Shown here: positions 38,401-50,003 of the stretch, piece after piece | Layout of the letters: each line of letters begins with the position of its first letter | How positions within the stretch are numbered: the first letter of the stretch is position 1 | Assembly: GCF_000177235.2 (NCBI RefSeq) | Contig: NC_014829.1 | Location: 1,488,001-1,552,000, forward strand | Source of the DNA: Evansella cellulosilytica DSM 2522 | GTDB lineage: Bacteria > Bacillota > Bacilli > Bacillales > Salisediminibacteriaceae | Direction: 5' to 3' | DNA: 64,000 nucleotides | The notes under the pieces: model-generated | The model's input: the letters and a program-made list of their open reading frames with translations, nothing else | Database searches by the model: none | What the model was told of the DNA's origin: nothing | Translations under genes and position numbers: made by a program

Positions 38401-39024
38401 TTAATGAATGATAGAATAGACAAGACTATTCGCGATAATACTGTGTCCTCTTCCGTTTGGGTGAATACCAAATTGGAGTACGCTTTTCCCTTGCTGTCTA
38501 AAGTTGTAATATAAGTCAACATACTTCACGTGTTCGGATTGTAATGAATGGAGAAATTGGTTGAATGCCTGTACCCAATAATTACTATAGTGCAATTGAG
38601 GTAACGGATTGTATAGTCCGATAAATTGAATCGTATACTTTTTGTTTGATGTAGCTTTTATTTTCTTGATTTCTTGAACGATTGCTTGAATATTTTTTTG
38701 ATAAATGTCATATGCCTCTTGAAAGACAATTTGATTATTCACCTTTTTAAATTTCTTGTTTGCTTGAAGTAAGTCGTTTCCACCAATGCTTATCGTTATA
38801 ATGTCCGCATGGAATATAGATTGCCGAATCTGTGGTGTCGAGTAAATCATATGCAAGAGAGTGGCGGAAGGAATACCACGCTTGGCAAAGGTTTGCGTTC
38901 TTACAGGAAGACGGAAATTATATTGTAATAAGGTGGAGTATTGTTCGACGAATCCTGCTTTAGTTAAGGATCCTGCACCAACGGTAAGAGAATCTCCTAA
39001 AGCGGTGTAATTAATTTGCTTCAC
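38401..39024 (-). CDS. SGNH/GDSL-family hydrolase
   Basis: The protein has 207 residues from a GTG behind AAAGGAGAG. Block I is ALGDSLTVGAG with nucleophile Ser12, block III is ISIGGNDLL, and block V is GIHPNGRGH near the C-terminus, where the usual Asp of the DxxH pair is replaced (LQFGIHPN). No signal peptide is seen. Relatives such as YpmR are esterases or lipases of unclear substrate. It is a single gene, convergent with the DUF624 gene. Confidence 0.85.
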   Translation of the reverse strand: MKQINYTALGDSLTVGAGSLTKAGFVEQYSTLLQYNFRLPVRTQTFAKRGIPSATLLHMIYSTPQIRQSIFHADIITISIGGNDLLQANKKFKKVNNQIVFQEAYDIYQKNIQAIVQEIKKIKATSNKKYTIQFIGLYNPLPQLHYSNYWVQAFNQFLHSLQSEHVKYVDLYYNFRQQGKSVLQFGIHPNGRGHSIIANSLVYSIIH

Positions 39025-39389
39025 CTTAATCTCTCCTTTTATTAAGGCTTTTTTAAACAGCTGTTGGTCAATACTTTAAAATAGCGATTACCACTTTCAA
39101 TGCTTCAATACGAATGGAAAAAGCGATGTCAGTTGAAACCAACAGCAATAGTCGTTAATATCGCCTTTCTTAAAGCTATAATATTGTATGGAGAATAATG
39201 GTGAAAAGTTAATGATTTAGACGCTATCTAATCTTTGTGGAATGAATTATTGCACGGGGAATGGTAATGAGAAGAATATAAGTTGTCGCGTCATGCTTTG
39301 AAATACAATGCAATGTACTCTCATCACATAGGGAGGTAGTCTCAAATGGGTGATTTACATATTGAATTTTCTCTGTGATTTTTTACTCT
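39025..39389 (-). other. Gap between the SGNH gene and the tandem array
   Basis: 365 bp of AT-rich DNA. It should contain the promoter of the minus-strand hydrolase. No gene, RNA or strong hairpin is recognised. Confidence 0.3.
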
Positions 39390-39957
39390 AAGGTGAGGTG
39401 AAGTAACCCGGGTTAGAGTGAACCAGGGTTGAAAAGTATCACCTTCAAAACGTGAGAAAACGAGAGCATGAGTGAGTTTGAAGGTGAGGAAAAGTAACCC
39501 GGGTTAGAGTGAACCCGGGTTGAAAAGTATCACCTTCAAAACGTGAGGAAACGAGAGCATGAGTGAGTTTGAAGGTGAGGAAAAGTAACCCGGGTTAGAT
39601 CGAACCCGGGTTCAAAAGTATCACCTTCAAAACGTGAGAAAACGAGAGCATGAGCGAGTTTGAAGGTGAGGAAAAGTAACCCGGGTTAGAGTGAACCCGG
39701 GTTCAAAAGTATCACCTTCAAAACGTGAGGAAACGAGAGCATGAGTGAGTTTGAAGGTGAGGAAAAGTAACCCGGGTTAGATCGAACCCGGGTTCAAAAG
39801 TATCACCTTCAAAACGTGAGGAAACGAGAGCATGAGTGAGTTTGAAGGTGAGGAAAAGTAACCCGGGTTAGATCGAACCCGGGTTCAAAAGTATCACCTT
39901 CAAAACGTGAGAAAACAAGAGCATGAGCGAGTTTGAAGGTGAGGAAAAGCAACCCAC
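39390..39957. repeat. 91-bp tandem repeat array with nested palindromes
   Basis: Six units start their TAACCC word at 39404, 39495, 39586, 39677, 39768 and 39859, exactly 91 bp apart; a seventh decays at 39950. Each unit has two AACCCGGGTT palindromes about 6 bp apart (the first unit has one damaged half), then CACCTTCAAA and TTTGAAGGTG, which pair across about 30 nt containing ACGAGAGCATGAG. Units differ by a few substitutions. The array is GC-richer than its surroundings and has no sustained reading frame. It lies between two minus-strand genes. Function unknown. Confidence 0.95.
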
Positions 39958-39981: not shown

Positions 39982-40860
39982 TTAACCATTCACGATACTA
40001 CCACCATTAACATGAATGACTTGTCCAGATACGTAGGAAGAATCATCAGAAGCTAGATAAACATAACTAGGTGCAAGCTCAGCCGGCTGTCCTGGTCTTC
40101 CCATTGGACTTGTTGTACCAAACTCACTTACTTGCTTTGCAGGAAAGGATGCTGGAATTAAAGGTGTCCAAATTGGTCCAGGTGCTACAGCATTAATTCG
40201 AATTCCTTTCGAAACTAAGTTTTCTGATAATGAACGTGTAAAGGCAATCATCGCACCTTTCGTTGATGCGTAATCCATCAATACAGGATTTCCTTTATAG
40301 GCGACAATAGACGCTGTATTAATGATCGTACTTCCTTCACGAAGGTAATTCATCGCAGCTTTTGTTAAGTAGAAGCAAGAAAAAATATTAGTCTTAAATG
40401 TTCTCTCCAGTTGTTCATCTGTGATATCTTCAATATTCTCTTGGTAATGTTGTTCGGCAGCATTATTAATGAGGCAATGAAGCTGTCCAAAAGTTTCAAC
40501 TGTTTTTTTTACAGCTGCTTTACAAAAGGAGGAATCACCAACATCACCTGGGATAAGTAAACATTCACCGCCATATTTTTCTACTTCAGCCTTTGTTTTT
40601 TCTGCATCCTTATGTTCATCCAAATAAAGGATAGCAATTTTAGCCCCTTCTTTAGCAAATGCTATTGCAACAGCTCTACCAATTCCACTGTCGCCCCCTG
40701 AAATGATAGCTACTTTATCTTGTAGCTTACCGCTTCCTTTATAGTTAGGATCATCATATACCGGTTCAGGGTTCATTTCACTTTCAAAGCCTGGCTGGTG
40801 CTCCTGAGTTTGAGCTGGTTGTCCCTTTGATTGTTTGTTTTTTATTTCATCATATTTCAT
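39982..40860 (-). CDS. Short-chain dehydrogenase/reductase, general stress protein 39-like
   Basis: The protein has 292 residues from the ATG at 40860 behind AAGGGGAG; the upstream frame to 40896 lies before that site. A hydrophilic N-terminal extension (about 1-40, rich in Gln, Pro and Glu) precedes the SDR core, as in B. subtilis YdaD/YhxC/YhdF. Motifs are GGDSGIGRAVA for NAD(P), the Tyr-Lys pair in MDYASTKGAMIAFTR, and INAVAPGPIWTPLIP. It probably reduces carbonyl compounds under stress; relatives are SigB-controlled, but no SigB promoter was verified here. Confidence 0.88.
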   Translation of the reverse strand: MKYDEIKNKQSKGQPAQTQEHQPGFESEMNPEPVYDDPNYKGSGKLQDKVAIISGGDSGIGRAVAIAFAKEGAKIAILYLDEHKDAEKTKAEVEKYGGECLLIPGDVGDSSFCKAAVKKTVETFGQLHCLINNAAEQHYQENIEDITDEQLERTFKTNIFSCFYLTKAAMNYLREGSTIINTASIVAYKGNPVLMDYASTKGAMIAFTRSLSENLVSKGIRINAVAPGPIWTPLIPASFPAKQVSEFGTTSPMGRPGQPAELAPSYVYLASDDSSYVSGQVIHVNGGSIVNG

Positions 40861-41054
40861 GTTAACACACTCCCCTTTATACGTTATTTTTATCATGTCT
40901 CATTTTTATGTGATTTAACCAAAACAGAGATGCATCGTACAGCATAAAATCTTTTGGGAAAAAGTTTGACATTTATTACTTGAGATAGTAAAATGTAAAC
41001 TACGTTAAAAAATGTTATTGATTTTTTTAAACTGATTCACCTCACCTCAAAGCA

Positions 41055-44885: not shown

Positions 44886-45530
44886 GTGCGCTTGGCAGCG
44901 CATCGAACTAATGGGTGGAAGTCCCTAACACGCCGAAGTGGCGGAAGTGTATAGCTGACAGGTAGTGCATGTCCGCGAGGAAATGTGTGGAGGACCTGAA
45001 GGCGAATCTCGGAACAGACGACTAACCACCATGTTGGCTGACAGAATCGGATAACCTTGCGAAAGATGGGGAAGTCCAGTGCCACAAGAGGGTTCTGTAA
45101 GTTATGAGGACTGGGTTCGAGGGAAAGCTTGATGACGTGACCCAAGGAGATCTCATCATCTCCGCTATGCAGTGGTAACTCTCAAACAAGTCCGTGAGGG
45201 GCGAGTTGGGATTATGGGTGGTGAGAAGTCAGAGCAGGGGATATTAGTGAATAAGCTCGTCGGAAAAGTCGTAATGGCGAGTGACTTAGCATGGCGTTGC
45301 TAAGGCGAGCCCTTACCCAAAAGGAAGGGACTTGATGCGAAGCCCGTCTGTCCATGGAAGAAAAGCAATTCAATTTAGAAAGCCGTCATGTGCCAAGCAG
45401 AAGCCAGTGAGGTGGAGCCTAAGAACTGGGGTCGAATAGTAAGTAGACCGTTTGGGACGGAGTACTTTAGGTAAAACTCGGAAAATGCCGTGTGCTAGTC
45501 ATCCGAGAGAGCCAAGGGAAGGATACGAAC

Positions 45531-46856
45531 ATGAGCGAGAGATTAAATAAGAAGAGTTTTCGTGATGGAGTAAAGTCTACACAAAAGAGAAAATGGTATA
45601 GCTTAATGGATAAGGTATGGGCTATGTCCAACATGGAGGAAGCATTCAAAGAGGTAAAACGAAATCGAGGGTCTGCAGGAGTAGATGGAGTTTCTATCCG
45701 TACTTTTGAACACGGGGTGGAGGACAATGTACAAGTTCTTCAACGTGAATTAAAAGAAAAGGCCTATAGACCGAGACCCGTGAAGCGTGTATTTATTCCA
45801 AAAACGGATGGGACGAAAAGACCTTTAGGAATTCCTACTGTGAGAGACCGTGTTGTTCAAGCGGCTGTACGTCGCATTATAGAGCCAATTTTCGAAGACA
45901 AATTTTTGGATTGTAGTTTCGGATTCAGACCGAATAAAAGTGCACATATGGCATTAGAGAAAATCCGAAAGGATTTAATGGATGGGTATGTGTACGTAAT
46001 TGACGCTGATCTAAAAGCCTACTTTGATACAATCCCACAGGATAAACTCATTCAAGCTGTAAGGGAAGAAGTAGTAGACGGTAGTGTTATTCGGTTGATT
46101 CAGAGTTTTTTACAAGCAGGGGTTATGGATGGAGGAAGCTTCCACCTTACTGAAAAAGGAACACCTCAAGGTGGGGTTATTAGTCCATTACTTGCAAATA
46201 TCTATTTACACCCACTCGATGAACTGATGACAAAACGGGGGCATCGAATCACAAGGTACGCTGATGACTTTGTTATATGTTGTAAATCACAAAAAGGGGC
46301 TGAAAGAGTCCTTAAATCAGTAACTCGCTTCTTAAACGAGGAACTAGGTTTAACGGTTCACCCTGAAAAGACTAAGGTTGTTAATAACCTAGAAGAACCA
46401 TTTCTATTTTTGGGTCACGAATTCAAGGGTGGTTATTATGTTTCTGCATCTCCTAAAGCTTTAAAGAAATTTAAAGAAAAGGTTAAGGAGATCACTAGGC
46501 GAAACCAAACCGTAAACATCGAGACATTGATTAAAGAAAAACTTAATCCATACCTAAGAGGTTGGGGTAACTACTTTGGTCACTTTTATGGGAAGACTAT
46601 ATTCACTATATTTGATGGATGGATACGTAGAAGATTAAGATCAGTTCAATTAAGAAGTTGGAGAAATATTAGGAAATTGCACAGGGAACTGAGGAAAAGA
46701 AAATGGAAAGGAGATCTCCCTAGATTGCGTATGAATAGATGGAGAAGCTCTTTGTCTACCCCAGTACATACTGCTTTACCTAAAGAATGGTTCGTAGAAA
46801 TCGGTCTTGTCTCACTTGTAAAACTTTACAATGATCATCATCCCCAACGGGGATAA
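45531..46856 (+). CDS. ltrA: Group II intron reverse transcriptase/maturase
   Basis: The protein has 441 residues from the ATG at 45531, 7 nt after GGGAAGGA. RT motifs in order are RPLGIPTVRDRVVQAAV, FLDCSFGFRPNKSAH, YVIDADLKAYFDTIP, GTPQGGVISPLLANIYL and the active-site YADD in ITRYADDFVICC. The maturase X domain (about 330-430) includes NPYLRGWGNYFGHF. No HNH endonuclease domain follows. All catalytic motifs are intact, so it may be active. It helps the intron splice and copies it into new sites. Confidence 0.95.
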   Translation: MSERLNKKSFRDGVKSTQKRKWYSLMDKVWAMSNMEEAFKEVKRNRGSAGVDGVSIRTFEHGVEDNVQVLQRELKEKAYRPRPVKRVFIPKTDGTKRPLGIPTVRDRVVQAAVRRIIEPIFEDKFLDCSFGFRPNKSAHMALEKIRKDLMDGYVYVIDADLKAYFDTIPQDKLIQAVREEVVDGSVIRLIQSFLQAGVMDGGSFHLTEKGTPQGGVISPLLANIYLHPLDELMTKRGHRITRYADDFVICCKSQKGAERVLKSVTRFLNEELGLTVHPEKTKVVNNLEEPFLFLGHEFKGGYYVSASPKALKKFKEKVKEITRRNQTVNIETLIKEKLNPYLRGWGNYFGHFYGKTIFTIFDGWIRRRLRSVQLRSWRNIRKLHRELRKRKWKGDLPRLRMNRWRSSLSTPVHTALPKEWFVEIGLVSLVKLYNDHHPQRG

Positions 46857-49724: not shown

Positions 49725-49862
49725 GGTTATGTTTTTTTATAGTATTATGACGGGTGAATGTTTTCGTTCACTTGTCTTTTTTTATTTCAGTGTTTGTTAT
49801 TTATAGTCAAGCTAGTAATAGGGGAGTTGTTTTTGCCAATGAGGAAAAGAAGATGTGTGTGA

Positions 49863-50003
49863 ATGTAAGATGGCGCGCGGCCATCTGCCCTTGAGCAAAG
49901 AAAAAGTATTGTGAAGGTAAGGTGGCGCGACGCCAATTGCCTTTGATTAAATAAAAAAGTAAGTAAAGGACAGATGGCGTGCCGTCCCATCTGTCCTTTA
50001 GCA
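49863..50003 (+). repeat. Three 52-bp-spaced hairpin repeats
   Basis: The word TGGCGC/T occurs at 49871, 49923 and 49975, exactly 52 bp apart. Each copy is a small palindrome (GATGGC-GCGCG-GCCATC; GGTGGCG-CGA-CGCCAATT; ACAGATGG-CGTGCCGT-CCCATCTGT) followed by a CTTT and an A-rich stretch. They fill the 350-bp gap between two convergent genes. The copies have drifted while keeping the hairpin. Confidence 0.75.

What the first reader, a model, noticed from the sequence alone, without database searches (positions are those of the whole stretch)
39390..39957. 91-bp tandem array in which every unit carries two SmaI-type palindromes and a long hairpin
Six units repeat at an exact 91-bp period with a decaying seventh. 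Each unit joins a double AACCCGGGTT palindrome to a CACCTTCAAA/TTTGAAGGTG hairpin whose loop carries ACGAGAGCATGAG. In an AT-rich genome, about a dozen CCCGGG-type sites in 550 bp is extreme. Substitutions fall mostly in spacers and loops (AGAGTG versus AGATCG; TGAGTGAG versus TGAGCGAG), while palindrome arms are kept, which hints at selection on structure or protein binding. It does not fit CRISPR, a coding repeat or a known terminator. It could be a multi-site protein-binding array, a structured RNA array or a recombination hot spot.
Basis: seen in the sequence. Interest (0 to 1): 0.75.

Follow-up and report, generated by a model that had tools for sequence, protein, structure and literature searches.

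The report
Replication-oriented tandem repeats of a transposase
The 91-bp repeat is one of eleven such arrays spread over this bacterium's chromosome, all pointing the way DNA is copied, and they most likely belong to a domesticated single-strand transposase whose gene sits beside one of them; related species carry the same kind of arrangement with different repeat letters.

Summary
The array is real: 6.2 copies of a 91-bp unit at 39390-39957. It belongs to a family. The genome (4,681,672 bp, the published size of Bacillus, now Evansella, cellulosilyticus DSM 2522) holds 11 such arrays with 78 full units. In 11 of 11 the GA-rich strand is the replication leading strand. The array at 4384 kb lies 216 bp 3' of a RAYT-like (Y1/HUH, REP-associated tyrosine transposase) gene. 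In two RAYT clades (Evansella, Salipaludibacillus and kin) 7 of 11 genes have an 89-103-bp tandem array just 3'; the other four have palindromic sequence there; 1 of 110 other RAYT-like genes has a comparable repeat. Repeat letters differ between lineages. In two sister species 16 of 17 multi-unit loci follow replication with the same polarity; at least 11 loci are shared, mostly with different copy number. Own arrays tend to start at one point of the unit (7 of 11 at positions 2-4) and end anywhere. Best reading: a REP/RAYT-type system without the GT[AG]G tag whose repeats live as head-to-tail satellites. Mobilisation is inferred. Compensatory stem evolution was tested and not found, and replication polarity is not cleanly separable from gene orientation.

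The parts
39390..39957 (+). Array of 91-bp units, GA-rich strand on +; starts at unit position 4, ends at about position 23 (6.2 units)
   Evidence: TRF; sequence split into units; edge alignment
39478..39568 (+). One complete unit: dyad (positions 1-62) plus GA-rich linker (63-91); further unit starts at 39569, 39660, 39751, 39842 and (partial) 39933
39478..39539 (+). Dyad of that unit: arms TTGAAGGTGA / TCACCTTCAA around two AACCCGGGTT palindromes 16 bp apart
   Evidence: folds as ssDNA at -21.2 kcal/mol for the unit
39405..39414 (.). First AACCCGGGTT palindrome of the array
39421..39430 (.). Second palindrome of the first unit, with one changed base (AACCAGGGTT)
38401..39024 (-). Flanking GDSL-type lipase/acylhydrolase gene (context)
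39982..40896 (-). Flanking SDR oxidoreductase gene, its 3' end 25 bp from the array (context)

Best explanation
The array is one member of a REP-like satellite family tied to a RAYT (TnpA-REP, a domesticated IS200/IS605-type Y1 HUH transposase) encoded outside the window at C1:4383360-4383932, 216 bp from the array at 4384 kb. Shown: the 11-array family, its unit design, orientation, preferred start point, intergenic position, and the pairing of this RAYT type in related species with repeats just 3' of the gene. Inferred: the RAYT recognises the palindromic dyad as single-stranded DNA and acts with fixed polarity, which would give a preferred 5' edge, a ragged 3' edge and one orientation relative to the fork. 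Arrays then lengthen, shorten and homogenise in place by slippage or unequal recombination and are inherited at fixed intergenic sites, often just after transcription terminators, where they do little harm.
For: 11 of 11 arrays with one polarity relative to replication. Array 216 bp 3' of a Y1_Tnp gene. 7 of 11 RAYTs of two clades with an 89-103-bp array within 600 bp 3', against 1 of 110 others; in all seven the strand in the gene's sense is CT-rich (by eye). The own unit is found in no other genus genome beyond 3 weak partial hits in G002, so repeat letters change with the lineage. Sister species: 16 of 17 loci with the same polarity. 7 of 11 own arrays start at positions 2-4 (0 of 200,000 simulations reach this). 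Homogenisation: 7.2 differences within, 17.3 between arrays.
Against: Binding, cutting or movement not shown; no empty site found (3 of 3 loci sought in a sister genome were occupied). No GT[AG]G tag in the unit consensus. NCBIfam REP_Tyr_transpos matches only below its cutoff (49 against 80 bits). The clade limits for the 7-of-11 count were drawn after the arrays were known, and the array label needs 5 changes on the tree. Dyad folding is weak in Evansella sp. AB-P1 (z -1.7) and S. aurantiacus (z -2.2). Gene orientation alone would give 11 of 11 with probability 0.12. One locus (L145/L168) and one relic (745.9 kb) run against replication.
Confidence: 0.65

Rival explanations
1. Neutral satellite: tandem units spread by ordinary duplication and slippage; the neighbouring RAYT is coincidental or no longer involved.
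For: Copy number differs clearly in about seven of the shared loci of two sister species; units homogenise within arrays; no compensatory changes.
Against: 11 dispersed arrays with one orientation and a preferred start; palindromes kept in 77-78 of 78 units for nine of ten self-pairs; RAYT-repeat pairing in other species. Slippage alone does not disperse arrays.
Confidence: 0.17
2. Host protein-binding array: the double palindromes are sites of a host DNA-binding protein and the arrays mark replichore direction or organise the chromosome; the RAYT only spread them.
For: Near-invariant double palindromes and uniform polarity.
Against: Only 11 arrays, unevenly placed, with 2 to 16 units; palindrome letters differ between sister-level lineages and even between arrays of G003/G005, which is unusual for a host site. 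No candidate protein found; none was searched for.
Confidence: 0.1
3. Structured RNA array: the units act as RNA hairpins behind terminators, protecting or ending transcripts.
For: 10 of 11 own arrays lie 3' of a co-oriented gene; units fold well as a strand (DNA parameters).
Against: A terminator-like site precedes 20 of 34 arrays; no compensatory changes and a stem broken in three arrays; the window array is antisense to both neighbours.
Confidence: 0.08

Closest known systems
REPtrons: RAYT/TnpA-REP with REP or REPIN repeats (PMC6006769 passages and section 12; PMC3733652 and PMC8266576 passages)
   Same: Y1 HUH transposase gene flanked by palindromic repeats that are dispersed between genes, with a repeat family per transposase
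   Different: No GT[AG]G foot in the own unit; head-to-tail arrays of 89-103-bp units rather than singletons or inverted pairs; repeats seen only 3' of the gene in the seven cases; Bacillota
Tandem GI/GIII REP arrays of Pseudomonas fluorescens SBW25 (PMC3116915, passages)
   Same: Tandem REP arrays, forward near 2 Mb and reverse near 4 Mb, that is one orientation per half of the chromosome
   Different: Other phylum, 112 + 72 bp spacing, two REP types alternating; no shared sequence claimed or tested
IS200/IS605 transposons (IS608, ISDra2; PMC6006769, passages)
   Same: Transposase superfamily; action on the lagging-strand template gives a reason for orientation
   Different: Repeats are non-coding and tandem; no copy of the gene moves with them in this genome as far as seen
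CRISPR arrays (recalled)
   Same: Tandem repeats with partial dyads
   Different: No unique spacers; whole 91-bp unit repeats

Membership tests
REPtron (RAYT + REP) | Gene for a Y1/HUH transposase | tested here: met
   PF01797 in 5 of 5 clade proteins; H-Y-H motif invariant in 5 of 5; nucleophile tyrosine not identified by a call
REPtron (RAYT + REP) | Transposase passes the curated REP_Tyr_transpos model | tested here: not met
   Own protein 49 bits against cutoff 80; the model matches 5 of 5 clade proteins at E <= 0.001, their scores were not all shown
REPtron (RAYT + REP) | Repeats beside the gene and dispersed in intergenic DNA | tested here: met
   Array 216 bp 3' of the gene and 10 more arrays
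REPtron (RAYT + REP) | GT[AG]G tetranucleotide at the foot of the palindrome | tested here: not met
   None on either strand of the tandem consensus of 78 units
REPtron (RAYT + REP) | Transposase cuts its REP as single strand | not testable with these tools
   Needs protein
BIME / REPIN | Two REPs in inverted orientation forming a larger hairpin | tested here: inconclusive
   Each unit is a dyad with two palindromes inside outer arms, but the repeats run head to tail and the palindromes are themselves symmetric
CRISPR | Constant repeats separated by unique spacers | tested here: not met
   The whole 91-bp unit repeats; linkers are similar
IS200/IS605 element | Mobile gene with its own ends in several copies | tested here: inconclusive
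   One copy of this gene type; other own-genome matches are at most 36% identical; ends were not searched for

The most novel reading that the evidence does not exclude
A domesticated Y1 transposase builds tandem satellites in a polar, replication-coupled way: it cuts at one preferred edge of the dyad on fork-exposed single strands, and units are added from that edge with imprecise termination, in the manner of rolling-circle HUH elements. The arrays would then be RAYT-made, strand-specific structures on each replichore rather than products of slippage.
Probability: 0.2. Interest if true: 0.8.

Novelty: new variant of a known kind. Interest (0 to 1): 0.5.

Why it matters
How RAYTs spread their repeats is still open. 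This family gives clean material: few arrays, one orientation, a preferred start edge, a small intact RAYT beside one of the two longest arrays, and related species in which repeat letters and transposase have both changed. In the papers seen, tandem REP arrays with one orientation per chromosome half were described for Pseudomonas fluorescens SBW25; this would extend the pattern to Bacillota.

Tried and rejected
CRISPR, coding repeat and Rfam RNA were rejected. Phage or plasmid link: no match for the array in 50,697 phage and 72,556 plasmid records (records of this or a very near genome may be left out). Compensatory change within the genome: looked for, none (own count in Python, one L041 unit with an extra palindrome is in the 78). 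Empty-site test: three loci were sought in the sister genome and all three were occupied, so no insertion junction was obtained. First genome-contig scan with the single RAYT: no relatives; the second, with an alignment, kept the best 80 loci of at least 544. PDB sequence search with the RAYT alignment: 0 hits at 0.001. No structure prediction was run.

On recheck I changed two things. L158 (G005) and L284 (G003) proved to be one shared locus, and L160, L161 and L163 share a flank that in L160 and L163 is the 3' end of rRNA genes, so these three count as one locus; my first tally of 19 sister loci became 17. L160 had looked like an array running against both neighbour genes; its 5' neighbour is in fact a co-oriented rRNA operon, so it no longer speaks for replication over transcription.

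Left out of the orientation counts: sister-genome places with a single or short match. By L141, L144, L162, L166 and L172 agree with replication, L153 disagrees, L148 and L150 are undecidable. The own relics at 1612.5 kb (agrees) and 745.9 kb (disagrees) are left out too.

Literature: absence claims rest on the listings only; the library lacks most subscription journals. A cited paper on transposon orientation and the sliding clamp (PMC3971601) was not held.

Full report
WHAT IS THERE. The array at 39390-39957 is real: period 91, 6.2 copies, 96% matches. It holds 11 CCCGGG sites; the rest of the window holds none. It lies between a GDSL lipase gene and an SDR gene, both on the minus strand.

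THE GENOME. The window is C1:1488001-1552000 of a single 4,681,672-base contig. That is the size printed for Bacillus cellulosilyticus DSM 2522 (PMC3617157, passages seen); the present name Evansella is from recall, with named Evansella relatives. dnaA starts at base 139. GC skew in sampled stretches turns from mainly plus to mainly minus near 2.45 Mb.

THE FAMILY. A search with the unit finds 11 arrays. On the + strand: 878.8, 1028.9, 1527.4 (window) and 1630.2 kb. On the - strand: 3104.9, 3762.1, 3835.0, 3932.1, 3950.3, 4384.2 and 4525.1 kb. Together they hold 78 full units, 74 distinct. AACCCGGGTT occurs 164 times in the genome, the letters read backwards 0 times; 100 places were listed. 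Outside the arrays I saw a degenerate unit at 1612.5 kb and a fragment at 745.9 kb. In nine genus genomes the own unit matches only its own genome, apart from three weak partial hits in G002.

ORIENTATION. All 11 arrays have the GA-rich strand on the leading strand. One-sided chance is 0.0005 at p 0.5. But 93 of 113 long ORFs sampled in this genome are on the leading strand, and if arrays merely followed genes the chance would be 0.12. The window array runs with replication and against both neighbours; the other ten lie 3' of a co-oriented gene.

UNIT AND CONSTRAINT. Positions 1-62 form a dyad: outer arms TTGAAGGTGA and TCACCTTCAA around two AACCCGGGTT palindromes. Positions 63-91 are a GA-rich linker. 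As ssDNA the window unit folds at -21.2 kcal/mol, z -7.7. Of eight units folded, from seven genomes, z ranged from -7.9 to -1.7, weakest in Evansella sp. AB-P1 and Salipaludibacillus aurantiacus; in AB-P1 the inner part looks like a direct repeat rather than two palindromes (by eye). In the own genome the ten palindrome self-pairs are kept in 77-78 of 78 units, except one at 74 of 78. No outer-stem pair changes on both sides; pairs 6 and 7 are formed in 63 of 78, owing mainly to the arrays at 1630, 3105 and 3932 kb. So inside this genome the evidence favours constraint on sequence over constraint on pairing. Units differ by 7.2 positions within and 17.3 between arrays: homogenisation in place.

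EDGES AND POSITION. By alignment 7 of 11 arrays start at unit positions 2-4 and one at 87; three start later (18, 19, 34), and by eye these have degenerate sequence before them that again begins with AGGTG. In 200,000 simulations 7 of 11 never fell in one 3-position window. Ends lie at 12, 20, 23, 28, 42, 42, 46, 49, 64, 67 and 70. A terminator-like hairpin with a T-run lies within 150 bp on the 5' side, same strand, in 20 of 34 arrays (11 own, 23 from two sister species, several of them the same locus in both), against 3 of 34 on the 3' side same strand, 8 of 34 on the 3' side opposite strand and 5 of 34 on the 5' side opposite strand (own simple detector, no genome-wide background). In the own genome it is 7 of 11, the window array not among them. 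No own array lies between divergent genes (0 of 11).

THE TRANSPOSASE. The array at 4384 kb lies 216 bp 3' of a 191-aa ORF that matches Y1_Tnp (PF01797, 1.3e-12) and, below cutoff, REP_Tyr_transpos. Homologues occur in 9 of 9 genus genomes held. Just 3' of the closest ones TRF finds 101-bp arrays in G003 and G005, an 89-bp array in Evansella sp. AB-P1 (G006), 91-bp arrays in S. aurantiacus and S. neizhouensis, and a 103-bp array in G028. Among 121 distinct RAYT-like proteins gathered, 8 have a 75-135-bp repeat of 1.9 copies or more within 600 bp 3': 7 of 11 in two clades and 1 of 110 elsewhere, the latter 78 bp, 1.9 copies. Some of the 110 loci have short flanks, and the clades were delimited after the arrays were known. 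The four clade members without an array have unit-like or palindromic sequence there (by eye); the other loci were not searched systematically for palindromes, and one of them, L078 (G002), also has a hairpin there. On the tree the two clades have support 95/85 and 100/100; the array label needs 5 changes, and 20 of 500 shuffles are as low. The copy in E. vedderi (G008), and probably that in G026, lies beside an atpC-like gene as in the own genome (by eye).

SISTER SPECIES. G005 (dnaA at 1.929 Mb) and G003 (dnaA at 1.138 Mb) (skew) carry many arrays whose units measure 86, 101 or 131 bp, that is one, two or four palindromes per dyad. Flanks of shared loci are 84-96% identical in their main pieces; 11 loci are shown to be shared, with clearly different copy number in about seven. 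The six loci seen in one species only were not sought in the other, except through these comparisons. Counted as one lineage there are 17 multi-unit loci by my tally: in 16 the GA-rich strand is leading, in one (L145/L168) it is not. Three of the 16 (L156/L171, L157, L158/L284) lie near the terminus in G005; without them it is 13 of 14. Chance for 16 of 17 is 0.00014 at p 0.5 but 0.057 against the sampled gene bias of 212 of 280. In G003 five matches (L160, L162, L163, L172, and L161 by flank) lie at the 3' end of rRNA operons or their copied flank. By the nearest gene, three of 28 loci (window, L145/L168, L158/L284) are not 3' of a co-oriented gene, against one of 28 that defies replication; this does not separate the two causes.

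INTERPRETATION. The findings fit a REP/RAYT-type system whose repeats persist as tandem satellites. Literature seen: tandem REP arrays, forward near 2 Mb and reverse near 4 Mb, in P. fluorescens SBW25 (PMC3116915, passages); TnpA-REP classes with atypical repeats lacking GT[AG]G (PMC6006769, section 12); action of Y1 transposases on the lagging-strand template (PMC6006769, passages). Inferred and not shown: recognition, cutting, movement, and that replication rather than gene orientation sets the polarity.

LIMITS. One genome per species is held, so strains could not be compared. Genes near arrays are simple ORF calls. Array lists in sister species come from searches with one or a few units and need not be complete. 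Orientation of the most diverged arrays rests on the GA-rich linker.

Noticed in passing
window 49858-49979: 2.3 copies of a 52-bp repeat with G+C-rich palindromes (around GGCGCG) in an intergenic stretch; a further palindromic stretch follows.
   Followed up: partly
window 39347-39379: A possible 10-codon ORF after an AGGGAGG motif just before the array on the + strand.
   Followed up: no
window 45492-46856: ORF that looks like a group II intron reverse transcriptase (by eye; no family search made).
   Followed up: no
L046 4051-4956: SIR2-like gene (PF13289, 2.3e-10) with a below-cutoff AbiH match, 159 bp from the array at 3932 kb.
   Followed up: no
L071 968-1085: 38-bp tandem repeat, 3.1 copies, upstream of the own RAYT.
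   Followed up: no
L143 4554-4800 (G005): A dispersed repeat of about 250 bp; the search of G003 returned about 40 matches to it.
   Followed up: no
L160, L162, L163, L172 (G003): Array units at the 3' end of rRNA operons, so copies may be duplicated or converted together with ribosomal operons.
   Followed up: partly
L148 4291-4694 (G005 1256290-1256693): A 104-bp tandem array, 3.9 copies, of unrelated sequence.
   Followed up: no
G000 C1:1612546 (L279) and C1:745868 (L039): Degenerate single units of the family outside the 11 arrays, one with and one against replication.
   Followed up: yes
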